From IMG/VR virus record IMGVR_UViG_3300036861_000719, positions 1 to 35,748 of that record: a DNA stretch of 35,748 bases; one strand, 5' to 3'. The notes beneath the pieces are model-generated. The model was not told the origin of the DNA. It made no database searches and saw only the letters and a program-made list of their open reading frames with translations. Shown piece by piece: positions 1,479 through 31,831 of this stretch; position 1 is the first letter of the stretch, and every line of letters begins with the position of its first letter. The translations under genes were made by a program, and so were the position numbers. Origin of the DNA: a virus.

Positions 1479-1627
1479 TAGACAGGAACCTTCCTATCGT
1501 TCACGATGAATACGTGAAGACCGCTTTGGGTTGGCTCGTATGCATTCCGTTGCTCGTGGTCGGGATCGCTGTGGCCATCGCGTCGCTGTTTTTCAAACGG
1601 CTGCGATGGAGCGGCCACTAGGCTCAT
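1478..1627 (-). CDS. Small hypothetical protein between tail genes
   Basis: The 49-residue protein begins SLVAAPSQPFEKQRRDGHSD and ends GLHVFIVNDRKVPV. The ATG overlaps the fibre stop (TGATG) and its TAG overlaps the next GTG (TAGTG), so it fills the gap exactly. A plus-strand ORF with a hydrophobic segment covers the same bases, but has no ribosome-binding site. Function unknown. Confidence 0.5.
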   Translation of the reverse strand: MSLVAAPSQPFEKQRRDGHSDPDHEQRNAYEPTQSGLHVFIVNDRKVPV

Positions 1628-3624
1628 CACACACCGATGATCAGCATCCGGCTGCCCGCCTTGAGGTTCTTCCCGGCTGGTGCCGCGATCTTCGCCCGGG
1701 AAATCGCTGTCGTGTCGCGGAAGGCGATGCCCTGCTTATCCACCTGATTGTTGCCAGCGGTGGAATCCATGATTGCTTTGTCCGCGCTGCCGATCTTGAA
1801 GCCGGTCGTTTGCGCGTAGGCAGGAATCTCGGCGTGCCAGACGCTGAAGAAGCTGGCTGCGAGGTTGGCTCCTGCCGCCCCGATGACGAGTCCTGTTTGC
1901 GCGAGGCTGATCACGCCTGAGACTGTGGTGTTGGCGACGCGGATCAGTTCGAGGTCATATTTGGCGCCAGTGTCGTTGTTGAACGTCAGCGTGCAGGCGC
2001 TGATCGCGACTGCCTCATCGGTGCGCAGATACAGGTAGATGTCGATCTTGTTGTAGGAGCCGGAGATGCCACCTGCGCCCGTATCGATCGAGGCGGCGTC
2101 CGCGCCGAGGGTGGAGTCGAACAGGATCGCGGTCGCGCCGCTCCCAGCAGGGCCTGTCGCGCCCGTGGCCCCAACACCGGTGGCTCCCGCAGCCCCCGTG
2201 GCACCCGTTGCGCCTTGAGCTCCCGTCGCCCCGGTCGCGCCCTTCTCGCCGATCGGCGAAGCACGGAAATTATCCGCGACCAGAGCGCCGCTGTTCCCGT
2301 ACGCGAACCCCACATACCCGGCGCCCGAATACGTCTCGTCCGTCGCGTAACCCGCGAACTGCCAGTTCGACCCGTCGTAATACCACGCCTCGATCCGGGT
2401 GCCGACAACCGCGATCCCGATCGCCGCGACCGCGCTCGTCACCACACCCGTGAACGTCGCCAGTGTCGCCGCCGGCGTCGCGATGTCGCCGCCGCCGGTG
2501 TTCGAGTCGAACCGGCAGATCTTCAGGCTGGCTGCGTGCCCGCCGCCGGTCTCGGTCGACTCCAGCCGCACCCCATAACACTGCAACGGATCCGTCTGCT
2601 TGATCCGCGCGAACACGTCGAAATGGTCACCTGACGGGTAGCCGCCAGCGCCGACAGCGTTCTCCAGGGAAACCATCGGATTCTCGTACTGGAAGTCGTT
2701 GCGGTAACCGGCCGCGTGGAAGCTGTTGGTCGCTACCGAGTTTTTCAACTGGTTCGAGAACACACGGCCTGGGTTGGCGAGCCCTGCCAATGTGCCCCAT
2801 TTGCCGCCGTTGCTGTTGGGGTCTTCGTCGGCGCGGTTGAAGTTGTCGACGAGGCTGGGTGAGAAGATACGGCCTGCGGCGCCGCTCGCGCCCGTCGCAC
2901 CAGTGGCGCCCTGGGCGCCAGTGGCGCCCAGGGCTCCTTGCGCTCCTGTCGCGCCTGTGGCGCCGCCCGGTGTGCCCTGCGGGCCAGTCGCGCCGGTCGC
3001 CCCTAACGCGCCCACCCCTGTTGCGCCGGTCGCCCCGTCGGCGCCGACGGTGCCTGTCGCGCCGGTCGCCCCGGTCGCGCCACCGGCAGGCCCCGCCGGT
3101 CCCGTGGCGCCGGTCGCGCCACCAGCCGAACCCGTCGCGCCAGCCACGCCCGTAGCCCCCGTAGCACCCAGCGAGCCTGTAGCCCCCACAGGGCCAGCCG
3201 ACCCGACAGCACCGGTAGCGCCAGCAGGAAGGGCGGGATAGAAGATCGACAGATCCCCGGTCAGGTAATCCAGCACCCAGCGGGCGACCGTGAAATCGCC
3301 GCTGCCCGGGTCGACAATGTCGTCGATCCAGGTCGGCTCCTTCTCCGTGAGCAGATAGGCCGGGAGCGTGCAGACGACAGTGCCGGAATCGCCGCCCTTC
3401 ACATGGCCACGCTTCTCCAGCCCGGAGGGGCCCTTCCGGAACGCGAGTCGTGCCAGATCACCGCCCGTCAACGGGTCGGTGAGCGCATCCTCCCAACTGT
3501 TCTGGAACCCGAGCGGGAACGCGTCCGTATCGGTTGCAACCTCGTACCAGTCGCTGACGATCCGGTCTGAGCCGCCAGGCAGGTGGCTGATGCCGTGGTC
3601 GACGATGTCGTCGAGTCCGCTCAT
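1627..3624 (-). CDS. Collagen-like tail fibre
   Basis: The 665-residue fibre has an N-terminal attachment part (about 1-133), then about 115 residues of Gly-X-Y triplets rich in GAT (about 135-251). A LamG-like region follows ([20 protein letters not shown], about 257-455), then a second GXY run (about 457-500) and a C-terminal beta-rich tip from [18 protein letters not shown]. The triplets would form a trimeric helix. The ATG overlaps the distal tail stop, and its own TGA overlaps the next ATG (TGATG). The tip is the likely receptor-binding part. Confidence 0.88.
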
Positions 3625-4949
3625 CAGACGGAGATGTTGTAGTAGGCGACCGGGGAGACGTTGACCTCGAGCGTGACCATCGCGTAATCGCCGTTCAACG
3701 GTCTGATCAGGTAGGAGAGCCCTTCGACGTAGAATTCGCTGCCGCCGAAACCGCCGCCGCCCGGGTGCGTGGTCGTCAGCGCGATGATGTCGCTGATGTC
3801 GATTTTGGTGAGCAGATCCCAGTTGGCGGTTGCACGGTGATCGTCGGGGCGGAGCGACTTGAACACGATCTTGCTCAGCCGCGGCACCGGGGCGGCGTAG
3901 TTGTCGACGATGTATTGCGCGAACGTCTTGCATTCGTCCTTGGCGTTGTTGCCGGTCGTGGTGCCCGCCTGGACGATCAGGTTCGGCGCCGACCAAGGCC
4001 GCACGCCGAACCGGGCGATCGACGTTCCCAAGTCCTGGATCACCTGGCCTGGCAGGTAGATGTCTTTCAGGCCTTTCGGGTAGGCGAGCGCGACGTTGTA
4101 GATGAACTGTGTTGGTTGCGCGAACCCGAGCTCGCGGATCTGCGCGGTGTCCGGGTCGTCCGCTATGGCGGCGCCGTCACCGGCTTTCCAGCGGTGGAAG
4201 TCCCAGTCGTTTCCGGGCTGCGCGGCGATGGCGTCCGGTGTGAAGCGCGAGAAGCGACCGTGGAAGCAGAAGCGGCCTAGGCGGTCCATGTACGTGTTGG
4301 CGACGTCCGGGAATTCGGCGTCGGCGGCGTCCTGGATGATGCTCAGGAACGACGTGCCGGGGTCGTACACCATCGGCTGCACGTCCACGTTGCCGGTGAA
4401 GACGCGGCGGAGTCCTGATGGCCAGCCTGCGTCTGTGAGCGCCTGGATGATCCTGACTTGGACGCTGCCGTCCTCGTAGAAGACCATGCCGTCGGAGCCT
4501 TCCGCGCCTGACGGCGGCGGGTCACCGGCGAGTCCCGGTGCGGCCTCTGCCCGTGTCAGGTAGTCGAATCCGTCGACGAGCGGGATCGCGTCACGGGTGA
4601 GGATCTTGGACGGCGCGACCTCTGATTGCTCGTCATCGGTGAAGCCGCGGAAGATCGTCTGCCATTCGGTCGTGACAGGGTTGTAGAGGTCGATCCGGCC
4701 TTGTCTGCCGATGATGTCCGGGTAGGCGGCGGACGGGTTGGTGGGGTCGAAGTCGCCGGCAATGTCGTTGATGGGCGTGTTGGCGGTGCCGGTGCCGGTG
4801 CGGTTGAACTCGTCTTGCCGTCCCCGGTCGATCGTGACGCCGGTCGCGGCGACAAGGTCTGAAGGGATTTGCGTCCAGGTGGGGTCGGCGGCGAGCATGC
4901 CTTCGCTGTCCTCGAGCGCGAGGTAGAGGCGCAGCCCGCCGTCCGGCAT
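3624..4949 (-). CDS. Minor/distal tail protein
   Basis: The 441-residue protein begins [20 protein letters not shown] and has [36 protein letters not shown] and [18 protein letters not shown]. This beta-rich arrangement and its position after the tape measure fit a distal tail or baseplate hub protein. The C-terminus is [17 protein letters not shown]. The stop overlaps the next ATG (TGATG). Confidence 0.72.
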
Positions 4950-7496
4950 TTAGGCGAGCCCGAGCCGGTGTCCTGGATGTCTGCCGCGCCGCTGCGAGTT
5001 GGTGCGGCGCGCTCTGCGCTGCTGCGTTTTCGTCAGGGCAGGCTCGATCCGTTTCCCGTCCAGGTACACGTTCACGCTCACGTCCGTGCCGCCCAGGTCT
5101 GGTAGCGCGAACCCGAACGCGCTGAAGCCTCTGCCGGGGGTGACGCCGCCGGGGCCGAGCTGCGAGACGCGGCCCTGCAGCTCGCGCAGCTGATCGGCTG
5201 TCAGGCCGAGACCGCCCAGCAGCGCGGTCAGGTTCGCTTTGCGGAACTTGGTCTTCAGGTTGTCCGTGTTCTGCGACAGCTGCCGGTTGACGTCGCCCAG
5301 CAGCTGCTGGATCGTTCGGCGCACATCAGCGCTCATGCCGCCCAGACCGTCCTTCAACGCTTTCCGGATCCGGTTCAGCAGCCCCTTGGTCTTGTCGGTG
5401 TCCAGGAACGTGCCTTTGACGGCGGCGCTGACGGTGAGCAGCTCTTTCTGCAGCCGTTTCACGGTCGGCACGATCGGTTCCCCGGTCGGGCCGAGGCCGA
5501 GGACGCGGAACTGTCTGGCGCTTCGCTGCTGCGCGAGCAGCTCGTTGGTCTGCTGCCGGTTCTCGAACAGCTGGCGCAGCAGGTCTGTGCTTTTGCCTTC
5601 CGACGCGATCCGCTGTTTGATGGCGGCCTGTTGAAGCGCGACGATGCGTAGGTCGTCGCGGAGCGTGCCTGTGATCTGGGCCTGCTCGAGCCGGAGGCTG
5701 AGCGCGTCTGCTATCGCCTGGTTGCCAGCCTGGACGGCGTCCTTGATGTTCTGCGCGAGCTGCTCACGGTCGCTCTTGATCTGCCGGAACACGTCGCGTA
5801 GTTGTCCTTCCAGTGTTAGCCGGCGCGTCACGTCCTTTGTTGCAGCCAATCTCTTCTGGATCAGACCGGCGATCTTCTCCAGCGCACTGATCTGCGCCTG
5901 CAAGCTCGTCTGGTCCTGAACGAGATCCTGCAGCCGACCGATCGACGCGTCGAAGAACTGGTTGCGCTGAGTGGCCGTCAACGGACGGGAAGGTCGCCCG
6001 GTGGCTCCGGTAAACCCTCCCTGACGAAGCCTCTCCGCGAACGTGGGAGCCGCCGGCACGACCGGTAGCCCTTGACTTGCTTGCAGCCATTTACGGAAAT
6101 CCGCGACCATCTGCGAAGACACAGACGATCCTGTGCGCCCGAGCTCTCTTAGCTTCTCGATGATCCTGTCGAGCGCCTGAACTTCAAGGCCATGCTCGCC
6201 ACGAAGCTTGGCGAATCGAGCGCGGATCTGCTCCACGTCTTCCACGTTCGCGTCAACAGGAATCTTGATCTCGGCGCCGGTGAGAAACCCGAGACGGTGG
6301 CTGCGCAGGAAGTTCGTGAGCGAGCGGTCGATCTTGTCCTTGTTCAGCAGCACCTCGACAGCAATGGCGATCGTCCCGATCGCCGCCAGCCGAAGCAGGC
6401 TAAGACGGAGAGCGACTGCGCGCCCCTCTGCTCCCTTCATGCCGATCGCAAGATCCGCCAGCCCGGTTACCCAGCCGCTCAGCCGTGACGCAACTTTGAT
6501 GGCGATCAGGCCGAGCAGCGCGTTACGCAAACCGCCGACGAGCCCCACCAACGGAGCGGTCACGGACCGCACAGTTTGCAGCACGCCGATGAGCGCTTTG
6601 AGAACACCAAGTCCCGCCTGCACGGTATCGCTGAGTTCGCGCTGGATACGCTCCTGATTCGCCGTGGAAGAGAGCCACGCCGCAGCCTTGTTCACGTACG
6701 CGGTCAATGCTGGGATCAACCCTTTACCGAGGCGCGCCTCGAGATCGGCGACCGCGGCCCGCAACTTGGAGGTAGCGACGCTGAGGCTGCCTGTGTTGCG
6801 GGCGACGTCTCCCTGCTGCAGCTTCGTGTCCTTGAGAATGATGTTGTAGGCGGCCTGCACCCTCTGGGCGGTAGTCAGATGCTTCGAGGTCTTGGCGATG
6901 CCGTCCGCGACCGCCTCCTCACCGATCCTGGCCTGGGAGAGGAAGACGCCGAACTGGCGTAGCGGCCGCACTTGGCCGGCGAGGCCGGATTGCAGCGCCT
7001 CGAGCACCTGGGCTGGGCTGACGTTGTTGAACGAGGCCATGTCGGCCGCCAGCTCGACCAGCCGCTCGCTCATTTTCGCCGCTGCTTTCTCGCCGAACCC
7101 GAGCGGACGCAGCATGTTCCCGAACACACCTGAGGCCTGGAGCGCGGCTGCCTCCGAAACGCCGAACGAGTTGCTCAATGTCTGCGCCCAGGATTGCACC
7201 TGCCTAGCGTTCCGGCCGAACACTATGCCGGTCTTCTCGGTCTCTTCCTGCACCTTCGAGGCTTCGCTCACGATCGACTTGAGCGCGATCACGACGCCAG
7301 CCCCACCCAGGAACTGGGCTGACGCGAACGTCAGCGCGCGTGACAGGCCGCTGATCCGCAGCGTGGCGGCTAGCGCACCCCTAGAGGTGCGGTCGAGGTC
7401 GCGGCCGAACACTTTGGCGCCCGCGCTCGAACGCTGGAACGAACGCAGCAGCGACCGCTCGTCCCCGACGACCTCGACGACGAGCTTGCGCGCCAT
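4950..7496 (-). CDS. Tail tape measure protein
   Basis: The 848-residue protein sets tail length. The N-terminus (LVVEVVGDERSLLRSFQRSS) and the block ASFNNVSPAQVLEALQSGLA, then GQVRPLRQFGVFLSQ, match the TP901-like tape-measure domain. The middle has helix-rich stretches and a hydrophobic segment near residue 365 (LRLAAIGTIAIAVEVLL). The C-terminal half has coiled-coil blocks (LRIVALQQAAIKQRIASEGK). Length predicts a tail near 120-130 nm, using the usual 0.15 nm per residue. The next gene begins right after its stop. Confidence 0.9.
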   Translation of the reverse strand: MARKLVVEVVGDERSLLRSFQRSSAGAKVFGRDLDRTSRGALAATLRISGLSRALTFASAQFLGGAGVVIALKSIVSEASKVQEETEKTGIVFGRNARQVQSWAQTLSNSFGVSEAAALQASGVFGNMLRPLGFGEKAAAKMSERLVELAADMASFNNVSPAQVLEALQSGLAGQVRPLRQFGVFLSQARIGEEAVADGIAKTSKHLTTAQRVQAAYNIILKDTKLQQGDVARNTGSLSVATSKLRAAVADLEARLGKGLIPALTAYVNKAAAWLSSTANQERIQRELSDTVQAGLGVLKALIGVLQTVRSVTAPLVGLVGGLRNALLGLIAIKVASRLSGWVTGLADLAIGMKGAEGRAVALRLSLLRLAAIGTIAIAVEVLLNKDKIDRSLTNFLRSHRLGFLTGAEIKIPVDANVEDVEQIRARFAKLRGEHGLEVQALDRIIEKLRELGRTGSSVSSQMVADFRKWLQASQGLPVVPAAPTFAERLRQGGFTGATGRPSRPLTATQRNQFFDASIGRLQDLVQDQTSLQAQISALEKIAGLIQKRLAATKDVTRRLTLEGQLRDVFRQIKSDREQLAQNIKDAVQAGNQAIADALSLRLEQAQITGTLRDDLRIVALQQAAIKQRIASEGKSTDLLRQLFENRQQTNELLAQQRSARQFRVLGLGPTGEPIVPTVKRLQKELLTVSAAVKGTFLDTDKTKGLLNRIRKALKDGLGGMSADVRRTIQQLLGDVNRQLSQNTDNLKTKFRKANLTALLGGLGLTADQLRELQGRVSQLGPGGVTPGRGFSAFGFALPDLGGTDVSVNVYLDGKRIEPALTKTQQRRARRTNSQRRGRHPGHRLGLA

Positions 7497-7901
7497 TTAC
7501 GCGTGCTCCCATGTGGTGCCCAGCTCGACCAGCAGCCGGTCGAAGCGTTCGAGCACTTCCTCGGTGTGTGCTTCTAGCGCCGGTTCCATCGCCTTGTCCA
7601 TCAGCAGACCGGCCAGGTTCGGGCGGCGTAGGCGTGGGTTGCGCCGCGACTGTCGTCCGCGTTCCACAGGCGCGACGTAGACGAGGTTGCGGCGGGCGAC
7701 CGCGCGCATCCGCTGCCAGGAAGGCCCGATCCGCGAGATTTCGTCTGCGGCTCGGTGCTCGGCGTCGATGCGGACAGGTTCGGCGACGTCCTTGAGGCCC
7801 TCGCGCAGTTCTTTGCTCGCTTGTTTGCCCGCCGTGGCGAACGCCCGTTGCAGGTCACCGAGCCCGTGCACGATCAGCTTCTGGCCGGAGAGGGCCGGCA
7901 C
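7497..7901 (-). CDS. HK97 gp10-like minor tail protein
   Basis: The 134-residue protein resembles HK97-gp10-type tail completion proteins: VHGLGDLQRAFATAGKQASK, ELREGLKDVAEPVRIDAEH and EVLERFDRLLVELGTTWEH. It is positioned between the chaperone and the tape measure, whereas this family more often sits near the neck. GTG overlaps the frameshifted chaperone stop. Function in tail completion is by family. Confidence 0.65.
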   Translation of the reverse strand: MPALSGQKLIVHGLGDLQRAFATAGKQASKELREGLKDVAEPVRIDAEHRAADEISRIGPSWQRMRAVARRNLVYVAPVERGRQSRRNPRLRRPNLAGLLMDKAMEPALEAHTEEVLERFDRLLVELGTTWEHA

Positions 7902-8492: not shown

Positions 8493-8909
8493 TTATGAGC
8501 CAGCGGTAGCGGCGATGCCGTTCTCGTCAGCGGCGGTGAACGTACAGGTCATCACGCGGACGCTGCCGCGGGTCGCGTCCGGATTGAACGTGAGCAGCTG
8601 CACGTTCCCGATATACGTTTCGCGTGTGCTGTCGATCAGCCCGTCCGGCTGCCACTGGATCGGGAAGATCGTCCTGTTCGCGTGCAGCGGGTACAGCAGC
8701 GCGTACGTTTCCGGCGTGTAGAACGCCTCCCCGCTCAGGCTCTGGTTCGTGACGCCGGCGAGAAACTCGCTGAAACCGCTGACGGAGAACCCGGACACGT
8801 CCTCCTGCGTGTGCTCCGACGAGAACCCGAAGGTGCGGAACGCGTTAGACGCGTCTGTGCCGTCGATGATGATCTCGTCGTGGAGAGCGATCTCCTTGGT
8901 GTAGGTCAT
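8493..8909 (-). CDS. Major tail protein (tube)
   Basis: The 138-residue strand-rich protein contains EIIIDGTDASNAFRTFGFSS, GVTNQSLSGEAFYTPETYAL, FPIQWQPDGLIDSTRETYIG and VRVMTCTFTAADENGIAAT. This and its position before the chaperones fit the major tail protein. It has its own strong ribosome-binding site (AAGGAGGGAAG) rather than an overlap, as expected for an abundant protein. Confidence 0.75.
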   Translation of the reverse strand: MTYTKEIALHDEIIIDGTDASNAFRTFGFSSEHTQEDVSGFSVSGFSEFLAGVTNQSLSGEAFYTPETYALLYPLHANRTIFPIQWQPDGLIDSTRETYIGNVQLLTFNPDATRGSVRVMTCTFTAADENGIAATAGS

Positions 8910-8911
8910 GC

Positions 8912-9139
8912 CTACTTCCCTCCTTCTTCGGTTAGCCAGCCGTGCGGGAGCCTGAACGTCCCCGGCTGAATTGACGGTGTGGAACGTTTGAGGAGCCTGA
9001 GGTCGCCGCGCTGGATAGCTCGTTGCGCGGCGGAAGGGTCAAGCGCCGCCTCGAAGACGCTGCCGGGCGTGTGGCCGCGATAGCTGCGGCGGCCGACAAC
9101 ACGGTAGAGCGCGTAACGCTGCGCCGAATAAACGGTCAT
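8912..9139 (-). CDS. Small phage neck/tail-region protein
   Basis: The 75-residue basic protein begins TVYSAQRYALYRVVGRRSYR and contains PSAAQRAIQRGDLRLLKRST. It lies between the modification cassette and the tail tube. ATGA overlap with the glycosyltransferase stop. A structural role is inferred from position only. Confidence 0.55.
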   Translation of the reverse strand: MTVYSAQRYALYRVVGRRSYRGHTPGSVFEAALDPSAAQRAIQRGDLRLLKRSTPSIQPGTFRLPHGWLTEEGGK

Positions 9140-9903
9140 ACGGCCACCAGCACTCCCGCCCGCTGGTAGTGCGCGCGCATCTCGCGCAGCGCCTCAGCCG
9201 GGTAGATTTCGGCCAGGCTGTCGAACGGGTCGCTGACCCCTTGCTGCTGGTACTTGGCCAGGTCGCTGTACGCGTTCAGCTGCTGCCCCGGCGATTTCCA
9301 GTCGACCAGCTGGCGAGCGTCGATCTCCCGGTGGCGTATGTTCAGGAACCGCTGCCTGCTGGCGATGTTGGTGAGGATGCTGGTGTCGCAGCCGCGCCTG
9401 CGATCTTCGTCAGCAGGCCGGAAACCGAGGCGCCTGACGACGTCGCGCGGATAGATCCTGATGCCGGATCCCCCCGTGTAGTTCAGGAACCGCGCGACCA
9501 TTTCTTTGCCGTCCTCGCGCACGAACGACATCTGCTGGAAACCGACGATCGTATTGCCGTCGGGCAGGTCGAGCAGGATCCGGTAGTCGACCCAGTCGTC
9601 GGAGCCAATCGGGACGACGTAGTCGGCTGGGCGCCTGTTGTATTGCGGGTCGCAGGCGAGTTGGATGCCGTCGTTGAACCGGCGGCTGAGGAACTGGTTG
9701 TCGCGCTCCACCGTTCCGAACCCAAGATTGCCTTCCAGCCTTCGGTTGAGCTCGCGCAAGTTCGGCCGGTCGGCGACGATCACCGCTGTCGCTTCGATGC
9801 CTTCCTGGCGGAGCCCGTCGCAGGTGCGGCGCAGCTGGCGGAGGCAAATCGCGGCGAGCGGGAGCCTCCCGTGTACCGGGACGACGAACCAGAGCGTCGG
9901 CAC
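9136..9903 (-). CDS. GT-A glycosyltransferase-like protein (family 2-like)
   Basis: The 255-residue protein begins WFVVPVHGRLPLAAICLRQL, typical of GT-A enzymes. It has a nucleotide-binding strand TAVIVADRPNLRELNRRLEG and a probable DxD-type motif at IGSDDW (D102, D103). Later, NYTGGSGIRIYPRDVVRR and RRRGCDTSILTNIASRQRFL form an acceptor-like region. It would add a sugar. The GTG directly follows the deacetylase TAG. Last gene of the cassette. Confidence 0.8.
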   Translation of the reverse strand: MPTLWFVVPVHGRLPLAAICLRQLRRTCDGLRQEGIEATAVIVADRPNLRELNRRLEGNLGFGTVERDNQFLSRRFNDGIQLACDPQYNRRPADYVVPIGSDDWVDYRILLDLPDGNTIVGFQQMSFVREDGKEMVARFLNYTGGSGIRIYPRDVVRRLGFRPADEDRRRGCDTSILTNIASRQRFLNIRHREIDARQLVDWKSPGQQLNAYSDLAKYQQQGVSDPFDSLAEIYPAEALREMRAHYQRAGVLVAV

Positions 9904-10638
9904 CTAGGCTGCTACCTGCTCAGGTAGAAAGGCCTCCGCCCACCAGTCGGCGTGAATCAGCATGTGCAGTTGCCCGTCAGGCGGAAAGCGTCGGCACACG
10001 TCGTCGAATGGTTGCGACCAGGAGCCGCCGGAGTCGCTGATGTAATCGGCGCGGCTCAGCCAGTTGGCGTCGTAGTCGAAGCCGAGCTCGGCGCGGCTGA
10101 TCGGGGCGAGCGGGACACCGGCGATAGAGCGTGTTGCGTCACCGTAGTCGGGCCGGCGCGACTCGAGGAAAAGTTCGTCGTTGACGAATCGGTGCTGATG
10201 ACAGAGGTTGTCGCCATGGGCGACGACGCCGCGGACAGGGTAACCGTAGGAGCGGAGTTCTTCGATCGCTTCCTCCGCGATCCCGACCGGATCCCTCCTG
10301 TTCGTCTGGATGGCGGCGGCGATCGCGTTCAAATGGAACCCGATCTCGTGGCCGCAATTGGCGATCAGCTCGAGCGATTCGACCAGGAGCCGCTTGTCGT
10401 TCCAGTATGGCGCCGTGTGCAGGATGAAGTAGGTTGCTCGGTAGCCGCGCTCGCGCTCCCACGCTGCCATCGCTACGGCCGGCTGAATGTAGTTGTCGAC
10501 GTCGTGGCGTAGACCGATGATCCTGCGGTCGAGAGCACCGTCGTGGATCTCCTGCATGGAAAGAACGGCGGTAGCTTTCACGAGCAGCTCGTCCAGGCAT
10601 TCGAGGTCTTCGCGCTGGAACGGCTCCTGGGCTCTCAT
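9904..10638 (-). CDS. Polysaccharide deacetylase (NodB-like)
   Basis: The 244-residue protein has the NodB homology domain: IIGLRHDVDNY gives the metal-binding Asp pair (D46, D48) and NCGHEIGFHLNAI gives H97 and H102. Further blocks are RERGYRATYFILHTAPYWN and VRGVVAHGDN. Enzymes of this fold remove N-acetyl groups from sugars. Embedded between two glycosyltransferases, it probably edits the same glycan. ATGA overlap with the upstream gene. Confidence 0.82.
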   Translation of the reverse strand: MRAQEPFQREDLECLDELLVKATAVLSMQEIHDGALDRRIIGLRHDVDNYIQPAVAMAAWERERGYRATYFILHTAPYWNDKRLLVESLELIANCGHEIGFHLNAIAAAIQTNRRDPVGIAEEAIEELRSYGYPVRGVVAHGDNLCHQHRFVNDELFLESRRPDYGDATRSIAGVPLAPISRAELGFDYDANWLSRADYISDSGGSWSQPFDDVCRRFPPDGQLHMLIHADWWAEAFLPEQVAA

Positions 10639-11555
10639 GCCGCCGCCATCTGACGCGCTGCCAGCGCAGCTAGGTCCGCGTCCGCAGCGGTGGCAGGCGA
10701 ATGGAAACGCGCGACGAATTTACGGCCAGCTGCTCCCAAGGAGACGCGCAGGCTACGGTCTCGCATTCTTCGCAGGTAGACGCGCAATCCAGCCTCGTCC
10801 TCGACGAAAACGGCCGGCGAGCCGACAGCGTGTAGTTTCTCGATCGTCGCTGCCGACGCTGTCGTGATCACCGGTAGCCCCATCGCCATCGCTTCCACAC
10901 CGTTGACGCCGTAACCGTCAGGCAGTGACCCGCGACCGATCGAGTCGACGACGAGCGAGCTGTGCCGCTTGCGCCCGAGCACCCCCTCGTTAGCCATGTT
11001 CTCGATCAGATCCACTTGCCATCCGGTCGCCTTCGCGGCGCGCAAGACCAGCTCCGTGCCCTTGGCTTCACGATCCGAGGGCGCATGGCAGAGACACAGC
11101 CTGTCGGACATGCTGGCTACCTCGAGCAGCGGATAGGGCGCTCCGCACAGTTCGATGTCGAGCGCACCGGCCAGATCGGCTGTACCGGTGGTGGCACGGA
11201 CGACGTTGCCAGCCCGGAGCAATTCCTTCACTACGCCGGGGTTGCCGCGAGCCCAGGAACCCAATGCTCGATAGAGCACTGGTTTGCCGGTGACGATGGC
11301 GGTCTCCAGGTAGAACGGATGCTCGTAGGCCATGATCGCGTCCGCCCAGGCAAGCAGATCGGCGATCGTGTCGGCGCGTTGCTCGGCCGAGTCGGTGCCG
11401 GGCGTCCACCGTCTCACTTCTGCATCAGCGTCATAGCCGAAGGGGTGCTCGAGCTCGACCACGAGCCGCGCCTGCTGGCCAACTGCGCGATGCGCTGCCG
11501 CCCAGCGTCCCGGGACTCCTGATGTGTCCCGGTAAGCGAGGTGCAGGATCTTCAC
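10635..11555 (-). CDS. GT-B glycosyltransferase (group 1-like)
   Basis: The 306-residue protein has two Rossmann-like halves. The N-terminus is KILHLAYRDTSGVPGRWAAA. The C-terminal donor-binding half shows CLCHAPSDREAKGTELVLRA, SLVVDSIGRGSLPDGYGVNG and VEAMAMGLPVITTAS, the hallmark of group 1 glycosyltransferases. It would transfer a sugar from a nucleotide donor. Its GTG overlaps the methyltransferase-like stop and its own stop overlaps the deacetylase start, so the enzymes are coupled. Confidence 0.8.
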   Translation of the reverse strand: MKILHLAYRDTSGVPGRWAAAHRAVGQQARLVVELEHPFGYDADAEVRRWTPGTDSAEQRADTIADLLAWADAIMAYEHPFYLETAIVTGKPVLYRALGSWARGNPGVVKELLRAGNVVRATTGTADLAGALDIELCGAPYPLLEVASMSDRLCLCHAPSDREAKGTELVLRAAKATGWQVDLIENMANEGVLGRKRHSSLVVDSIGRGSLPDGYGVNGVEAMAMGLPVITTASAATIEKLHAVGSPAVFVEDEAGLRVYLRRMRDRSLRVSLGAAGRKFVARFHSPATAADADLAALAARQMAAA

Positions 11556-12052
11556 GCGGCCTCCAGCACCGTCCAGTAGACGCCGCCTCTGAACGGCGAC
11601 CGAAACAAAATTCGGGTGACCGACCAGCCGTTGGGCGGTAGCACTACCGTCGCGAAGCCAGTGCCCAGCACGACCGCTCTCCGCGCCAGCCCGCAAAAGA
11701 CCGAGATCAGGTCAGCGCACCTGTCGAACTGCGCCGACCCGCAGTCGACCGTGACCACGTCCCATTTGCAGAGCAGCGCGTCGTAGACGAACTCGTACAC
11801 GTTGGCGACGATGAAGTCCCAGTCAGGCGGGTAGATTCGCTTCATCACCTGCACGCGTTCCGCGTCGGTGTCGACGCAGGTGGCGCGTAGGCCGGCTTCG
11901 GCGATCCAGACGGCGTCTTGCTCGCCGTAGAAGGCCGCGCAGAAGAGCACCAAAGCCGTCTCCGCGCCAGCAAGCACGCTGTGCGGGAACACGTCAGGGT
12001 CTGAGACCGATTTGATCCGGTCGAGCCCTCGCGGTGCCGTAGCGAGGTTCAC
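11552..12052 (-). CDS. Methyltransferase-like protein (Rossmann fold)
   Basis: The 166-residue protein shows a Rossmann pattern: TALVLFCAAFYGEQDAVWIA, EAGLRATCVDTDAERVQVMK, DFIVANVYEFVYD and KWDVVTVDCGS. The acidic residue after the second strand (CVDTD) could contact the ribose of S-adenosylmethionine. The glycine-rich motif I is poor, so it may be degenerate. GTG at 12052 overlaps the upstream stop. It sits between the acetyltransferase-like gene and a glycosyltransferase, suggesting a role in the same modification. Exact substrate unknown. Confidence 0.6.
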   Translation of the reverse strand: MNLATAPRGLDRIKSVSDPDVFPHSVLAGAETALVLFCAAFYGEQDAVWIAEAGLRATCVDTDAERVQVMKRIYPPDWDFIVANVYEFVYDALLCKWDVVTVDCGSAQFDRCADLISVFCGLARRAVVLGTGFATVVLPPNGWSVTRILFRSPFRGGVYWTVLEAA

Positions 12053-12705
12053 GGCAGCCACTTCACTGGGCGGGCGGCGAACCCGAGCCGCTCCTTGAAA
12101 AAGCGGAGTCCGTCCGACCCGGAGTCGTGGCGGTTGTAGACGAAGCAGCCGTCGCTACCGGCCTCGCTGGCCACGACTCCCTGGAAGAGCAGGAACATGA
12201 CGTCGTCTGCGAGCATGTCCGCGTGACCGAGGATGCTGGAAACCAACGCCAGCTCGCCGGCACGGTACAACCACATGTAGGCGCACAGATGGTCGCGCCG
12301 CAGCACGCCGTAGGTGCGCACGCAATGGCGCGCGCACGGATACTCCGGCAGCGGCGCAGGTGTAGGCCGGCGCCGGTACGGCTCGCTCATCGGTCTGCCC
12401 TGACGTTCATCCGCTGACGTGTTGATGGCGAAGATCGCATCGGAGTGGAGATGACGTTCGATGCGCTCGAAGCGGTATCCCAGGCGGGCGCTGCGGTCGG
12501 CGCGCTTGCGTGCCGTGCGATGGTCAGCTCTCCAATCCTCAAGCTGCTCGGGGATGCGCAGCACGCTGCAATCCTCGTAGCCGCGATTCAGCTGCAACAA
12601 GAGACCGCCGGCGATGTCCGAACAGAGCGGACTGACGGCACAATCCAGTTCTAGGCTGATAGCGACGTTCAGGGACTGACGGGTCTCTGTCGCGGGGGCG
12701 CTCAT
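12049..12705 (-). CDS. GNAT/FemX-like acetyltransferase-like protein
   Basis: The 218-residue protein has an acetyltransferase-like C-terminus: NRHDSGSDGLRFFKERLGFA then RPVKWLP, which resembles the end of GNAT/FemAB enzymes (FKxRxGF-x-PVxW). Other blocks are SDAIFAINTSADERQGRPMS and CAYMWLYRAGELALVSSILG. It could acylate a sugar amine or another group. It is the first gene of the modification cassette. The upstream frame is a shadow, and the TGATG overlap sets the start. Confidence 0.6.
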   Translation of the reverse strand: MSAPATETRQSLNVAISLELDCAVSPLCSDIAGGLLLQLNRGYEDCSVLRIPEQLEDWRADHRTARKRADRSARLGYRFERIERHLHSDAIFAINTSADERQGRPMSEPYRRRPTPAPLPEYPCARHCVRTYGVLRRDHLCAYMWLYRAGELALVSSILGHADMLADDVMFLLFQGVVASEAGSDGCFVYNRHDSGSDGLRFFKERLGFAARPVKWLP

Positions 12706-13127
12706 CAGCTGGTCACGTTGAGGACGGTGACGCGCCACTGGCAGCCGAGCAGCGCGCCCTCGCCGCCCGGATCGGGGTAGAGGCCGTAGCCTGTGGGTGG
12801 TTCGACGAAAACACCGTGCGCGAGCCCGCCCAATGTCGGCTCGTCCATCAGCGGCCGTGCCACGCAGAGGTCGTCTTCGTCGTCCATGAAAGCGATCAGC
12901 AAGTCTTGGCCTGCGACATGGTCGGCCGTGGTCACGCGGGCCCTGATCGTGAAAACGACTCCGCCGGCGATGTCACCGAAACCCGCGGTGTCGGTCTCTC
13001 TGGGCGGATCACCCGGGTAGATGTCGATCGTCGGCGGCGTCGGGTTGAGGATCAAACGGGGCTCCACCTGCACCGCGACATCCAGTCCGCTGTAGGCGGC
13101 TTCGAGCGTCTCAGCGATCGCTTCCAT
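12705..13127 (-). CDS. Tail terminator/completion-type neck protein
   Basis: The 140-residue protein contains IAETLEAAYSGLDVAVQVEP, PPTIDIYPGDPP and VVFTIRARVTTADHVAGQDL, ending WRVTVLNVTS. The pattern of strand-rich blocks and position after the connector fit a tail-terminator protein. Assignment is mainly positional. The stop overlaps the next ATG (TGATG). Confidence 0.6.
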   Translation of the reverse strand: MEAIAETLEAAYSGLDVAVQVEPRLILNPTPPTIDIYPGDPPRETDTAGFGDIAGGVVFTIRARVTTADHVAGQDLLIAFMDDEDDLCVARPLMDEPTLGGLAHGVFVEPPTGYGLYPDPGGEGALLGCQWRVTVLNVTS

Positions 13128-13550: not shown

Positions 13551-14804
13551 CTACGAGGCGGTCGTGATCATCGCGAACGCGCCCGGGTCTACAACCACGG
13601 CCTCGAACGCTCCGATGATGCCGACCTCGACACCGCCGATCGCGGGCTCCACGACACGGAGCTCGACCGGCGAGCCGGTCCTTTCCGCAACGAGCAGCGC
13701 CGACGAGTCGCCCACCGCCATCACGCCGGAATCCATCCCGCGCGACGCGACGATCTTCAGCGGCCCGATGCCCGCGTCGCTGACGGTCGCGAACTGTGCG
13801 AACGCCGCCGACGTGAGCCCGAACACGTACCAGTACCGGTCGACGGACGTGTACAGCGTGTCCGCCTTCCGCCCAGAGTTCGCGAACACGTCCGACGCTC
13901 CCGCCGCGACCGCGGTCAGGAAATCAGCGAACGTGAACGTGCCGGCCAGCGTGGTCGAGATGTTGTAGGTGAACGCCGAGTGCTGCATCGCCTGGGCGGC
14001 GTCCGCCTCCGTCTTCAGCGCGTAGTCCGCCGCGGCAAGGTCGAACCACAGCTGCAGCGCGTCCGGCGTCGACCAGTTCAGCGCCTGCCAGGACAGGTCG
14101 CCACCGCCGAGATAGGTAGACGCGGTCGTCGTCTCCATATCGACGACCATCCCCTGGTTCCCAGCCTCCGTCTTCTCCGTCGCCTGCACCGCCACGACCG
14201 GACGTTGCGACACGAGCGGGTAGGTGAGCGTGCCCCGCTCGAGCGTCGTCCGCCGGGCCGAATCGACGAGCGGCCTGGAATCGTCGATCACCTGCAGGAT
14301 CTGCGCGATGTGCTGCGGCGGCTGAAGACCGCCGACGTTCGACGACAGCGTGTTCGCAGGTGTTCGTTTGATCAGCTGCAGCCGCTCCTTCGCCGCCTGC
14401 ACCGCTGCCTTGTCGCCGAACTGGGACGCGATCTTCGAGCACACCTGTGACTCGCGGGTCAGGATCACGTCGCGTGCGTACGCGGCCATCGACCGGTACA
14501 CGATCCCGTCGTCGTCGACGTCGACGCCCTCCATCGACCCTGCGAGTGCACGCCTGATCGCGGCCGACGCGGCAATCGCGCGACGGTCGGACTCCATCAC
14601 CTCGGACAGCTCGGTGATCTCCGCGTCGAGAGCGTCGTTCCGCTCCCGGTACATCTTCAGCTGCTCCTTCTGCGTCGAATCCGGAAGCTTGTCGTCCATC
14701 TCCTGGATCCTGCTGATCAGCTCCTCGTGCAGCTTCTGCGTCGTCTCCCGCTCGTCGAGCAGGCTCTGAAGCCGAAGCTCGGTCTGTGTCGTAGTCGCGC
14801 TCAT
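13551..14804 (-). CDS. Major capsid protein (HK97 fold)
   Basis: The 417-residue capsid protein has an N-terminal coiled-coil delta (scaffold-like) domain: LRLQSLLDERETTQKLHEEL, ISRIQEMDDKLPDSTQKEQL and EITELSEVMESDRRAIAAS. Then the shell part follows: MAAYARDVILTRESQVCSKI, LVDSARRTTLERGTLTYPLV, TYLGGGDLSWQALNWSTPDA and TFADFLTAVAAGASDVFANS. This is the protease-cleaved HK97 layout. It has one of the strongest ribosome-binding sites in the window (AAGGAGGT), although buried in a hairpin. A hairpin follows the stop. Confidence 0.93.
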   Translation of the reverse strand: MSATTTQTELRLQSLLDERETTQKLHEELISRIQEMDDKLPDSTQKEQLKMYRERNDALDAEITELSEVMESDRRAIAASAAIRRALAGSMEGVDVDDDGIVYRSMAAYARDVILTRESQVCSKIASQFGDKAAVQAAKERLQLIKRTPANTLSSNVGGLQPPQHIAQILQVIDDSRPLVDSARRTTLERGTLTYPLVSQRPVVAVQATEKTEAGNQGMVVDMETTTASTYLGGGDLSWQALNWSTPDALQLWFDLAAADYALKTEADAAQAMQHSAFTYNISTTLAGTFTFADFLTAVAAGASDVFANSGRKADTLYTSVDRYWYVFGLTSAAFAQFATVSDAGIGPLKIVASRGMDSGVMAVGDSSALLVAERTGSPVELRVVEPAIGGVEVGIIGAFEAVVVDPGAFAMITTAS

Positions 14805-14920
14805 AGCGCGGCACCTCCTTGTCGAATCGAAGTTGCTGGCGTCGATTCGGCGGGTGCTGCTACGGAGGTGCCGCACAAGGCGGGGTGTCCGTGTCCGGCA
14901 GGGTGCGCCTTGACTACCAT
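14801..14920 (-). CDS. Putative 39-residue leader ORF coupled to capsid gene
   Basis: The ATG at 14920 opens a frame ending in a TGA that overlaps the capsid ATG (ATGA). The peptide is Ala/Gly/His-rich, e.g. VVKAHPAGHGHPALCGTSVA. The inverted repeat that hides the capsid ribosome-binding site lies in its second half, so its translation would open that structure. No strong ribosome-binding site precedes the ATG. It could be a real small protein or only a leader. Confidence 0.45.
   Translation of the reverse strand: MVVKAHPAGHGHPALCGTSVAAPAESTPATSIRQGGAAL
14808..14874 (-). promoter_or_regulatory. Hairpin sequestering the capsid ribosome-binding site
   Basis: A perfect 11-pair inverted repeat joins GCGGCACCTCC (14874-14864 on the transcript) to GGAGGTGCCGC (14818-14808). 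The second arm contains the GGAGG of the capsid gene, whose ATG is nine bases downstream. Inside lies a second stem of eight pairs (CGAATCGA at 14849-14842 with TCGATTCG at 14830-14823) and an 11-base loop. The structure lies within the leader ORF. Confidence 0.8.
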
Positions 14921-28143: not shown

Positions 28144-28467
28144 CGCCTTCTCGTCGTCCAGCTCTTCCGACCAGCTGGCGGTGATGATCTGTCCGCCTGG
28201 CGTGTGCAGGCGTTCCTCGGTAACGATTCTCCGACCATCGCGCATTGTCTCAGTGCGTTCCCCGACGATCCAGGGTGATGCTGCCCGGTCGGGTCCCGTA
28301 AGTCGCGGTGGTTTTGCTGGGGGAGCCCACCTGCCATCAACCACGCATACCGTTGCGAAAGGCGCCACCAGTTGCACATCCGGCGGTATCGGGTCTCCCT
28401 CGGAGAGCTGCACGACGATCTCTTCGTTCGTATCGATTCTCCAGGCTGGAACGTGCCACACGCTCAT
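28132..28467 (-). CDS. Hypothetical protein downstream of integrase
   Basis: The 111-residue protein has strand-rich N-terminal text (WHVPAWRIDTNEEIVVQLSE), a proline-rich middle and RDGRRIVTEERLHTPGGQII near the end. ATG overlaps the integrase stop. Its last three codons lie inside a 61-bp sequence that recurs after the gene ending at 27573. No family recognised. Confidence 0.55.
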   Translation of the reverse strand: MSVWHVPAWRIDTNEEIVVQLSEGDPIPPDVQLVAPFATVCVVDGRWAPPAKPPRLTGPDRAASPWIVGERTETMRDGRRIVTEERLHTPGGQIITASWSEELDDEKASQA

Positions 28468-28481
28468 AGTGCCGCCACCTT
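28463..28481 (-). repeat. Junction module, copy 1 (integrase stop)
   Basis: On the transcript this reads AAGGTGGCGGCACTATGAG. It encodes the integrase C-terminus (KVAAL-stop) and contains the GGTGGCGGC ribosome-binding-like stretch and the start codon of the next gene. Copies 2 and 3 differ by only three and two bases. Confidence 0.65.
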
Positions 28482-29369
28482 CTTCGCTACGTCTTCGATT
28501 GTGAGCGTGCCGTAATATTTGACGGTTGTGTTGATGCTCTCGTGCCGCATCATCAGCCGGCGCTCCTCGAGATCGAACCCGAGCTCGCGCAACCTATGCC
28601 CGAATGTGTGCCTGGTCTGGTGTGGGTTGAGGTAGCGGACGCCGGCGACCTGGATGCCGCGCGTGTACCAGCGTTCAAAGGTGGTGTCGGCGATCGGGTC
28701 GCGGCGCAGCCGGCGCGAGCCACGTCTCGTGTACCAGTAGTGATCTGTCGCGTTCAGCCGTTCGAGCAGGTCGAGGTCGGCGAGCGCGGTGGCGGCGTCG
28801 GGGAGCGGGACAATGATGCTGTCTTTCTGCCCTTTGCCTTGGTAGACGATCAGACGGTTTCGTTTCAGGTCGATGTGGTCGCGGCGCAGGTGGCGGGCCT
28901 CGCTACGGCGTAGGCCGGTGCCGAACAGGAGCGCGAACAGTTCGCCGTCCGGGGACGGGAGCGCCTCCAACAGGGCTTGCTCCTCGGCGCTGAAGATGTC
29001 TTTCGGGCGGCCTTTGGGTGCGCGCATCCTGGCGACCTTGTCCATCGGGTTGCGCGGCACCCGGTCTTGCTCGTAGGCCCAGCGGAACCAGCTGTTGTAG
29101 ATCGACCGGGTGATGTGGCGGGACTGGCGCGGCACGGCGGCGAGCGCGTCCTCGATCTGCGCGGCGGTGAACTCGTGCAGCTCAAGCTGAGGGTAAGCGC
29201 GGAGAAGAGGGGCGACCTGGCGGACGTACTGATAGAGGGTCTTGGCCGCTTTGCCTTCGAGGTCTAAGCGGACGAGCCATTCGGCCAAGTCCCCGGCGGC
29301 CCGTGCCTCCATGTGCCGGAGATCGCGCAGGTAGCCGGGAGCATACGCCCTGTGGGCGATCGCGCTCAT
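28464..29369 (-). CDS. int: Tyrosine-family site-specific recombinase (integrase)
   Basis: The 301-residue enzyme would integrate or excise phage DNA, or resolve multimers. The N-terminal SAM-like core-binding domain spans about residues 22-105. In the catalytic domain the visible residues are R154 (GTGLRRSEARH), K179 (GKGQKD), H250 and R253 (HQTRHTFGHRLRE), H276 (MRHESINTT) and a nucleophile Y285 or Y286 (VKYYG). All expected residues are present. The short length and lack of an N-terminal arm-binding domain make it XerC/D-like in architecture. It is co-oriented and coupled with genes on both sides, so it would be transcribed with the long leftward operon. The last codons (KKVAAL-stop) form the first copy of a junction sequence repeated downstream. 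Confidence 0.93.
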   Translation of the reverse strand: MSAIAHRAYAPGYLRDLRHMEARAAGDLAEWLVRLDLEGKAAKTLYQYVRQVAPLLRAYPQLELHEFTAAQIEDALAAVPRQSRHITRSIYNSWFRWAYEQDRVPRNPMDKVARMRAPKGRPKDIFSAEEQALLEALPSPDGELFALLFGTGLRRSEARHLRRDHIDLKRNRLIVYQGKGQKDSIIVPLPDAATALADLDLLERLNATDHYWYTRRGSRRLRRDPIADTTFERWYTRGIQVAGVRYLNPHQTRHTFGHRLRELGFDLEERRLMMRHESINTTVKYYGTLTIEDVAKKVAAL

Positions 29370-30634: not shown

Positions 30635-30848
30635 GGGCGTCCCTCTCGATGCTCTCGGGCTTGACGTACCGGATCGCCGTCTCGCCATCCGCCTTCGACA
30701 CGCGGATCTTGATTCGCTTGGCGGTTTGTTTGAGTACGCGGCAGGGGATGCGCGGCTCATAGGCGTAGCGGCTGCGGGCTTCGCGTATCCGCACGTCCGG
30801 GTAGTCGTGGCGCGAGGGTTCGTCCCGGGCACGGACATCAGCGGTCAC
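30624..30848 (-). CDS. Small basic hypothetical protein
   Basis: This protein has 74 residues, with a GTG start overlapping the lyase stop (GTGA). It is rich in Arg and charged residues. The central part (RVLKQTAKRIKIRVSKADGE) followed by TAIRYVKPESIE reads like a small beta-barrel or SH3-like fold. The longer frame upstream is a shadow of the lyase gene. No function can be assigned. Confidence 0.55.
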   Translation of the reverse strand: MTADVRARDEPSRHDYPDVRIREARSRYAYEPRIPCRVLKQTAKRIKIRVSKADGETAIRYVKPESIERDARVF

Positions 30849-31831
30849 GCTGTCACTTCGCTCTGGAGGCCTGCCTCGAGGATCCTGACGCCGTACCGGT
30901 GCTGTTTCCCGTCCTGCGGGCGACCGATACGGACGGAGTTCGCCGATGGTGACAGGGACGGATGCCGTTTTCCGTCCGTGAGCACGTCTGCCCCGTCGAG
31001 GAGTGGCACGAACCCGGCTTGTGTTGGGGGAGGTGTCCAACCCAGGGTGACCACGGTGGCAGTCAGCGCGGTTATGTCTAGCGCCAGTGGCACGGGAGGC
31101 GCTGCTCCGTAGAACGCGAGCGTCTCGTCCCTGGTCGAGCCGCGCACCGACCCGTCATGCAGGATCACCGTGTCCGTGGCGGCGCTGCCGTACCAGCCGA
31201 GTTCCGTGTACAGCGGCTTCGGGTTCGTCACACCCGCCGCAGTGCAGTAGGGGATCGTCGAGACACCGCTTTTCGACCAGGTCGGCGACGCAGGGAACGC
31301 CTGCTGCCCGGTCGCGTCCACCCGGTATTCGACCAGGCCCGAAGTCTTCGAGAACCTGATGTGCACGAGCACATCGACCCACTGGTTCATCGGCGGGACA
31401 CTTGACAGCACGTTGGCCGGGTACCAGACCGGCCAGCCTTGCCCGATCACGCCGTCCCCGGCGGCCAACCGGCATTTCAGCTGCCCTTGGTGGCGGATGA
31501 GTGCGTGCGGCGCCACCCCCAGATTCGACAGGTTGTACAGGTCCGACTGGTGGTGCAGTTCCCAGATCAGCCCGTCGTTGTTCGGCATCTGGAAACTGAC
31601 CCGGTACCACCATTCCTGCCCGTCTGCTTCGCCTGTGTCGTAGCGGGCGCAGAGGCAGCGGGTGCCCGGCGCGCCGCCGAACGTGTCGCCAGGACGGACA
31701 AGTACCCGCGCGGACGGCTTGCCTCTGCGACCGCTGGCGAGATACGAGAGTTGCGCTGTGACGTCGTGGCATTCGACCGCGCTGAACGCGGAAGCGTCCG
31801 CCTTGTCGAAAGTGAGGGCGAGCAGGCTCAT
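30845..31831 (-). CDS. Polysaccharide lyase-like protein (heparin-lyase-I/alginate-lyase fold)
   Basis: This 328-residue protein resembles the Polysacc_lyase (PF14099-like) jelly-roll family. Diagnostic stretches are ARVLVRPGDTFGG, EWWYRVSFQMPNNDGLIWEL, HHQSDLYNLSN, WVDVLVHIRFSKTSGLVEYR and LYTELGWYGS. Such enzymes cleave acidic polysaccharides by beta-elimination. Here the enzyme could be a depolymerase that opens capsule or exopolysaccharide. The last 90 residues (TALTATVVTLGWTPPPTQAG) look like a fibronectin-III-type beta sandwich. No signal peptide is evident. I chose the ATG at 31831, which overlaps the preceding stop; an ATG 15 bases upstream is less likely. It is unusually far from the tail genes. 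Confidence 0.7.
   Translation of the reverse strand: MSLLALTFDKADASAFSAVECHDVTAQLSYLASGRRGKPSARVLVRPGDTFGGAPGTRCLCARYDTGEADGQEWWYRVSFQMPNNDGLIWELHHQSDLYNLSNLGVAPHALIRHQGQLKCRLAAGDGVIGQGWPVWYPANVLSSVPPMNQWVDVLVHIRFSKTSGLVEYRVDATGQQAFPASPTWSKSGVSTIPYCTAAGVTNPKPLYTELGWYGSAATDTVILHDGSVRGSTRDETLAFYGAAPPVPLALDITALTATVVTLGWTPPPTQAGFVPLLDGADVLTDGKRHPSLSPSANSVRIGRPQDGKQHRYGVRILEAGLQSEVTA

What the first reader, a model, noticed from the sequence alone, without database searches (positions are those of the whole stretch)
9136..12705. Five-gene glycan-modification cassette inside the virion assembly operon
Between neck and tail-tube genes lie, in one coupled string, an acetyltransferase-like, a methyltransferase-like, a GT-B glycosyltransferase, a NodB-type deacetylase and a GT-A glycosyltransferase. 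Overlapping or directly abutting stops and starts mean they would be made with the capsid and tail proteins. This suggests that virion proteins are decorated with a sugar that is then N-deacetylated and further acylated or methylated. Glycosylated virions are known for some mycobacteriophages, but a set with a deacetylase and acyl- and methyltransferase-like partners is not something I recognise. Alternative: it changes the host surface.
Basis: partly seen in the sequence, partly recalled or inferred. Interest (0 to 1): 0.8.

Follow-up and report, generated by a model that had tools for sequence, protein, structure and literature searches.

The report
Phage sugar-coat cassette with NodB–FemAB pair
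A soil phage carries, among the genes that build its particle, a portable set of enzymes that probably attach a sugar, strip its acetyl group and put something else on the freed amine; close relatives lack the whole set at exactly this spot, and other, very different phages carry the same enzymes next to their own shell genes.

Summary
Five translationally coupled genes (window 12705→9136, minus strand) lie between the tail-terminator and tail-tube genes of a probably temperate siphophage-like record. Reading: A, GNAT fold nearest FemX/MprF/streptothricin aminoacyl-tRNA transferases; B, class-I SAM methyltransferase fold; C, GT-B; D, divergent NodB/CE4 deacetylase; E, probable GT-A (weakest call). 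33 contigs keep the block between tail terminator and the small gene F; 19 cassette-free relatives join those two genes directly (2–27 nt), so the block is a discrete insertion. All 41 A loci with ≥4 kb downstream also have D. The glycosyltransferase slot varies; A and D are the constant pair, usually with E. In phages with an unrelated capsid, E–A–B–X–D lies directly after the capsid gene (or capsid plus tail-tube-like gene). A+D also occurs in bacterial surface-polysaccharide loci, where NodB–FemAB adjacency is already known.
Best explanation: a soluble, late-expressed cassette that glycosylates virion proteins, N-deacetylates the sugar and re-acylates or aminoacylates the freed amine. Virion targeting is inferred from position; no glycan has been measured. 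Host-surface modification is the main rival. No relative of A, C or E was found among 50,697 phage records. New variant of a known kind (phage virion glycosylation).

The parts
12049..12705 (-). A: 218 aa, GNAT-fold transferase nearest to FemX / MprF / aminoacyl-tRNA-dependent transferases; predicted N-acyl- or aminoacyltransferase
   Evidence: AlphaFold2 pLDDT 94.9; Foldseek top PDB matches Sbb17, Sba18, FemX, MprF, E 6e-8 to 1e-5; cellular relatives hit Acetyltransf_6 / LPG_synthase_C below cut-off; K204 invariant in 53/53
11552..12061 (-). B: 169 aa, class-I SAM-dependent methyltransferase fold; absent from some relatives
   Evidence: AlphaFold2 pLDDT 92.5; Foldseek matches almost all methyltransferases, best E 2e-6; D64 and D106 invariant in 41/41
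10635..11555 (-). C: 306 aa, GT-B (GT4-like) glycosyltransferase; in most relatives this slot holds another putative glycosyltransferase family (X)
   Evidence: Glyco_trans_1_2 E=2.8e-4, below cut-off; NCBIfam glycosyltransferases E=3.9e-6; slot replacement
9904..10638 (-). D: 244 aa, divergent NodB-homology (CE4-like) sugar N-deacetylase, no signal peptide seen
   Evidence: hhalign to NodB domains E=2e-7, other pairings >=0.014; R44 H45 D46 D48 H102 H141 invariant in 43/43, H229 in 42/43
9136..9903 (-). E: 255 aa, probable GT-A (GT2-like) glycosyltransferase with a conserved SDDW motif
   Evidence: Best PDB profile match 3bcv putative glycosyltransferase, E=0.023; D102 invariant in 36/36; found beside the tail-tube or capsid genes in relatives
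8912..9139 (-). F: 75 aa gene of unknown function; right-hand boundary, native to the tail module rather than part of the cassette
   Evidence: Present directly after the tail terminator in 19 cassette-free relatives
12705..13127 (-). Tail terminator gene; left-hand boundary of the insertion
   Evidence: phrog_17840 tail terminator, E=1e-3; abuts F in cassette-free relatives
8493..8909 (-). Tail-tube (major tail) protein, 138 aa; candidate acceptor
   Evidence: Homologous to recognisable tail-tube sequences of relatives; PHROGs only E=0.06
13551..14876 (-). Major capsid protein; candidate acceptor
   Evidence: phrog_2263 major head protein, E=5e-29

Best explanation
A-E is a mobile, late-expressed, cytoplasmic cassette that decorates virion proteins with a tailored sugar. 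Proposed order: C and E (or X in relatives) transfer sugars from host nucleotide-sugar pools to virion proteins, most likely the abundant capsid and/or tail-tube protein; D removes the N-acetyl group of a HexNAc unit; A, a FemX-like GNAT enzyme, couples a new acyl or amino-acid group to the freed amine; B methylates the product. Shown here: gene order, coupling, predicted folds of A and B, NodB relationship of D, precise insertion into an otherwise contiguous tail module, constant A-D pairing, recurrence beside capsid or tail-tube genes in unrelated phages, and A-D in bacterial polysaccharide loci. Inferred: substrates, reaction order, donor of A, late expression, and that virion proteins are the acceptor.
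For: Translational coupling inside the head-tail operon. Gene order kept across divergent contigs. 33 occupied sites (2.6-10.8 kb between tail terminator and F, all with A, D and E) against 19 cassette-free sites (2-27 nt). D beside A in 41/41 A loci with >=4 kb downstream. E ends 35-267 nt before the tail-tube gene in most contigs where both occur. In phages with an unrelated capsid family (phrog_267) the cassette follows the capsid gene (L089, L073) or a capsid plus tail-tube-like gene (L059). D/A also near terminase or capsid genes in L198, L199, L201. A; B: 64, 72; C: 11, 43; D: 80. A+D in bacterial loci with a flippase, Wzm/Wzt-type exporter, epimerase and glycosyltransferases, as read from sequence. 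No membrane segment in A-E (highest 19-residue hydropathy 1.57). Precedent: Che8, Corndog and Myrna virion glycosylation (Freeman et al. 2023, as reported in PMC12363180; the original paper was not held).
Against: No experiment, no cultured phage, no glycan data. E is only weakly assigned to GT-A. D lacks the canonical second histidine of CE4 motif 2 (L, I or V at that place) and falls below Pfam detection. In L018 and L035 the tail-tube gene lies beside the capsid gene while the cassette stayed where it was, and in L098 cassette and tail tube are about 7 kb apart, so closeness to one given protein is not strict. No homology to the Che8 glycosyltransferases. Bacterial A+D loci act on polysaccharide, so a polysaccharide acceptor is possible. 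Many contigs are partial and genes were called from raw frames.
Confidence: 0.6

Rival explanations
1. The enzymes modify the host's surface polysaccharide during infection or lysogeny (receptor alteration, superinfection exclusion).
For: The A+D pair sits in bacterial surface-polysaccharide loci; the window encodes a tyrosine integrase, so the phage is probably temperate; phage glycosyltransferase clusters have been read this way in jumbo cyanophages (PMC7824862).
Against: Coupled to virion genes; no flippase or membrane glycosyltransferase in A-E and no membrane segment, unlike gtr-type seroconversion operons (general knowledge); repeated placement beside capsid or tail-tube genes in unrelated phages.
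Confidence: 0.22
2. The glycosylated acceptor is a fibre (such as the collagen-like tail fibre at 1627-3996) rather than capsid or tail tube, with a role in adsorption.
For: The window has a collagen-like fibre and several relatives have collagen-like genes next to D.
Against: Collagen-like proteins are common in such phages and those hits may rest on the repeats alone; the most constant neighbours are tail-module and capsid genes.
Confidence: 0.09
3. The cassette makes a small diffusible or lipid-linked amino-sugar product (an analogue of Nod factors or of aminoacylated amino-sugar antibiotics).
For: The enzyme set resembles nodA/B/C/S logic, and A's nearest folds include enzymes solved with the amino-sugar compound streptothrisamine (PMC12945691).
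Against: No exporter, carrier-lipid enzyme or sugar-nucleotide synthesis gene in the cassette; conserved position in the virion operon.
Confidence: 0.05
4. The cassette modifies phage DNA bases (glycosylation, methylation and acylation).
For: Phage DNA hypermodification uses glycosyltransferases, methyltransferases and GNAT enzymes such as Mom (PMC7824862).
Against: No base-modifying partner in the cassette or among the other window proteins scanned (not every ORF scanned); genes sit in the virion operon; cellular relatives of A+D are in polysaccharide loci.
Confidence: 0.04

Closest known systems
Virion glycosylation of mycobacteriophages Che8, Corndog and Myrna (Freeman et al. 2023, cited through PMC12363180 and PMC13313380)
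   Same: Phage-encoded glycosyltransferases; capsid and tail-tube proteins are the reported acceptors. Che8 gp108 appears by sequence to end in a methyltransferase-like domain (reading from motifs).
   Different: Che8 genes 108-110 lie at the far right end of the genome, have no NodB- or FemX-like partner among them, and show no detectable homology to A-E or X.
Bacterial exopolysaccharide loci with NodB-FemAB neighbours (for example the PEP-CTERM-associated cluster of Rubrivivax gelatinosus, PMC3684757)
   Same: A NodB-family deacetylase gene is listed next to a FemAB-related gene and to UDP-GlcNAc 2-epimerase; L102 shows A, D and an epimerase-like gene side by side.
   Different: Those are cellular polysaccharide loci; the phage set is compact, lacks export genes and sits in a virion operon. 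The phage A gave no hit to any NCBIfam model.
FemX / MprF / aminoacyl-tRNA-dependent GNAT transferases (Sbb17, Sba18, Orf11)
   Same: Overall fold and top structural matches; an invariant lysine in the C-terminal helix, possibly the counterpart of FemX Lys305 (inference).
   Different: A is shorter (218 aa against about 285-340 aa) with TM-score 0.5-0.57; donor and acceptor untested.
Rhizobial nodABCS logic
   Same: Works alike: glycosyltransferase, NodB N-deacetylase, N-acyltransferase and methyltransferase acting on one sugar (general knowledge).
   Different: Analogy only; homology of A to NodA was not tested, and no lipid or chitin-oligomer product is implied.

Membership tests
NodB / CE4 polysaccharide deacetylase (D) | NodB homology domain detectable by profile | tested here: met
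   hhalign to 11 PF01522 domain sequences: probability 94%, E=2e-7; other family pairings >=0.014. Pfam itself gives no hit.
NodB / CE4 polysaccharide deacetylase (D) | Motif 1 aspartates and catalytic histidine | tested here: met
   RHDxD invariant in 43/43; H229 in 42/43. Assignment to CE4 roles is by motif reading.
NodB / CE4 polysaccharide deacetylase (D) | Canonical motif 2 HxxxH metal-binding pair | tested here: not met
   H102 invariant, but the +4 position is L, I or V; another invariant histidine, H141, may take its place. D is therefore called NodB-related, not a canonical CE4 enzyme.
NodB / CE4 polysaccharide deacetylase (D) | N-deacetylase activity | not testable with these tools
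   Needs enzymology.
FemABX / aminoacyl-tRNA-dependent GNAT (A) | GNAT fold of FemX/MprF type | tested here: met
   AlphaFold2 pLDDT 94.9 and Foldseek E down to 6e-8 with this group at the top.
FemABX / aminoacyl-tRNA-dependent GNAT (A) | Curated sequence model above cut-off | tested here: not met
   No hit for window A; cellular relatives reach Acetyltransf_6 or LPG_synthase_C below cut-off. So 'FemX-like', not filed as a FemABX member.
FemABX / aminoacyl-tRNA-dependent GNAT (A) | Catalytic lysine (FemX Lys305) | tested here: inconclusive
   K204 invariant in 53/53 in the C-terminal helix; residue equivalence not verified by superposition.
FemABX / aminoacyl-tRNA-dependent GNAT (A) | Aminoacyl-tRNA as donor | not testable with these tools
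   No conserved CoA-type [QR]xxGx[GA] motif (pattern present in 19/53 only), which is suggestive at most.
Class-I SAM methyltransferase (B) | Rossmann-like methyltransferase fold | tested here: met
   AlphaFold2 pLDDT 92.5; Foldseek.
Class-I SAM methyltransferase (B) | Glycine-rich motif I (GxGxG) | tested here: not met
   Consensus LFAAAFxGxND in its place; the acidic residue D64 is kept. B is called methyltransferase-fold; activity is open.
GT-B / GT4 glycosyltransferase (C) | Glycosyl transferase group 1 profile | tested here: inconclusive
   Best Pfam E=2.8e-4, 21.3 bits against cut-off 25; NCBIfam 3.9e-6, far below the model's cut-off.
GT-A / GT2 glycosyltransferase (E) | GT2 profile or fold match | tested here: inconclusive
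   No Pfam hit; PDB profile best hit a putative glycosyltransferase at E=0.023; hhalign to GT2 E=0.09, no better than controls.
Phage virion-glycosylation systems (Che8 type) | Glycan on virion proteins | not testable with these tools
   Needs mass spectrometry.
Phage virion-glycosylation systems (Che8 type) | Glycosyltransferases homologous to Che8 gp108-110 | tested here: not met
   hmmsearch, blastp and hhalign all without signal.

The most novel reading that the evidence does not exclude
The phage coats its own particle with an amino-sugar that is N-deacetylated and then aminoacylated from aminoacyl-tRNA by a FemX-like enzyme, giving a charged, peptide-like glycan on capsid or tail proteins, and this module spreads among unrelated phages as a unit inserted beside virion genes.
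Probability: 0.2. Interest if true: 0.85.

Novelty: new variant of a known kind. Interest (0 to 1): 0.62.

Why it matters
Phage virion glycosylation is documented in only a few cultured actinobacteriophages, where it changes antibody recognition. A recurrent module pairing deacetylation with amine re-acylation would widen the chemistry known on virions, show that such coats are gained as whole cassettes at defined sites, and give a sequence signature (adjacent A and D genes beside virion genes) for finding them. It would also make testable whether the NodB–FemAB pairing known from bacterial polysaccharide loci can work on protein-linked sugars.

Tried and rejected
Direct Pfam, NCBIfam, PHROG and PDB sequence searches of A, B, D and E and of their alignments gave no assignment. 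No DNA match in phage records; protein searches with A, C, D and E, and with divergent A and D homologues from other contigs, found nothing or only one unannotated faecal contig with a partial D-like match. Whole-ORF hhalign for D was noisy and was replaced by a domain-trimmed version; E stayed inconclusive in both. A first tail-tube alignment was too divergent to search with; a narrower one worked. Considered F as part of the cassette because it follows E; rejected because it is present in cassette-free relatives. Considered the 138-aa protein as a capsid decoration protein because it sits beside the capsid gene in L018, L035 and L059; kept as tail tube because divergent homologues in tail position look like tail tubes. 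The tail-tube tree was labelled by contig content; L233 and L236 are labelled cassette-free but end before the site, so the count of 6 changes is an overestimate and no number of gains is claimed. An early script used a wrong start for C, corrected.
Full report
What is there. The window is a 35,748-base IMG/VR virus record. On the minus strand the gene order is terminase, portal, protease, major capsid, adaptor, tail terminator, A, B, C, D, E, F, tail tube, two further small tail genes, tape measure and, after one more gene, a collagen-like fibre. A–E are read as tightly coupled frames: overlaps of 1, 13, 4 and 4 nt, one direct junction, and a 4-nt overlap with F. The G+C content does not differ from the flanks. 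A tyrosine integrase at 28464-29369 makes a temperate phage likely.

What the proteins are. Only C has a direct profile signal, below cut-off. A: an AlphaFold2 model from 53 sequences (pLDDT 94.9) matches aminoacyl-tRNA-dependent transferases best (Sbb17, Sba18, FemX, MprF; E 6e-8 to 1e-5, TM-score about 0.5-0.57), and cellular relatives reach Acetyltransf_6 and LPG_synthase_C below cut-off. B: pLDDT 92.5, class-I methyltransferase fold, but without a glycine-rich motif I. D: profile-profile match to NodB domains at E=2e-7, the other pairings at 0.014 or worse; RHDxD, H102 and H141 are invariant in 43 members and H229 is kept in 42, while the second histidine of CE4 motif 2 is missing. E: weak GT-A evidence only, plus an SDDW motif.

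Conservation and insertion. Iterative searches of viral contigs gave 43 E loci, 54 A loci and 74 D loci, overlapping in contigs. After merging into 70 contigs or loci (window and four bacterial-genome loci included), the order tail terminator–{A,B}–X or C–D–E–F–tail tube recurs, with A and B in either order and the glycosyltransferase slot usually filled by another family, X. Every A locus with at least 4 kb downstream has D within 6 kb (41/41). A tail-tube search brought in relatives without the cassette: in 19 of them tail terminator and F are 2-27 nt apart, against 33 contigs with 2.6-10.8 kb and the A, D and E genes between them. F therefore belongs to the tail module and A–E is the inserted unit.

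Other settings. In contigs with a different capsid family (phrog_267) the cassette follows the capsid gene directly (L089, L073), or follows a capsid gene and a tail-tube-like gene (L059). More distant A/D pairs lie after a terminase gene (L198), after a terminase and a glycosyltransferase-like gene (L201), after a capsid–protease-like gene (L199) and before a tail gene (L197). In L018 and L035 the tail-tube gene sits beside the capsid gene while the cassette keeps its place. In bacteria, A and D are neighbours in loci that, by reading of the sequences, hold a flippase, polymerase, epimerase and glycosyltransferases (L102), a flippase (L103), or a Wzm/Wzt-type exporter (L279); in L101 they sit next to groEL and in L280 near a glycosyltransferase-like gene. 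A is rare in bacterial genomes: 1 of 250, 3 of 251 and 2 of 397 sampled genomes, each count including the genome used as centre.

Mechanism. The most economical reading is a sugar attached by C/E, deacetylated by D, re-acylated or aminoacylated by A and methylated by B. A–E have no membrane segment (highest hydropathy 1.57) and no evident signal peptide, so the work would be cytoplasmic; late timing follows from the operon. The acceptor is inferred from gene position: virion proteins, capsid and tail tube first. The donor of A is unknown; the absence of a conserved CoA motif and the invariant K204 fit a FemX-type enzyme but do not prove it. FemX-type Orf11 adds glycine from Gly-tRNA to streptothrisamine (PMC12945691).

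Known comparators. Mycobacteriophages Che8, Corndog and Myrna glycosylate virion proteins (PMC12363180); the original report was not held. The Che8 glycosyltransferase genes 108-110 lie at the far right end of its genome and show no homology to this cassette. A NodB-family gene listed beside a FemAB-related gene and a UDP-GlcNAc 2-epimerase is reported for a PEP-CTERM-associated cluster (PMC3684757), so the pairing itself is known from bacteria; its place in phage virion operons was not found in the papers searched.

Limits. All phage relatives are metagenomic contigs, some partial; gene calls come from raw frames and profile hits; the Actinomycetota bin behind L100 may simply hold a phage contig, so the host is not settled. 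No protein of the cassette has been tested.

Noticed in passing
L009:8001-8987: The E gene of this contig holds, in frame, a stretch resembling the small protein F, while no separate F gene lies before the tail tube. One case; an assembly fault is possible.
   Followed up: partly
L018:2748-3161 and L035:2412-2825: The tail-tube gene sits directly after the major capsid gene instead of after F, while the cassette and F keep their places.
   Followed up: partly
window 28464-29369: Tyrosine integrase (Phage_integrase, E=9e-22), so the phage is probably temperate.
   Followed up: no
window 1627-3996: Collagen-like tail fibre gene; some relatives have collagen-like genes right beside the cassette.
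   Followed up: partly
window 30845-31846: Weak Polysacc_lyase match (E=3e-4, below cut-off).
   Followed up: no
L003:6242-6847, L195:1780-2367, L198:5850-6401, L201:8084-8686: Other methyltransferase-like genes recur near the A/D genes, in place of or in addition to B.
   Followed up: partly
L012:3509-4066 and 5665-6030: HNH-endonuclease-like frames before and inside the cassette region, perhaps homing elements (read from sequence only).
   Followed up: no
window 7497-7901: The gene labelled tac2 in my scripts looks more like a HK97 gp10-type tail protein than an assembly chaperone; its order relative to tac1 swaps in relatives.
   Followed up: no
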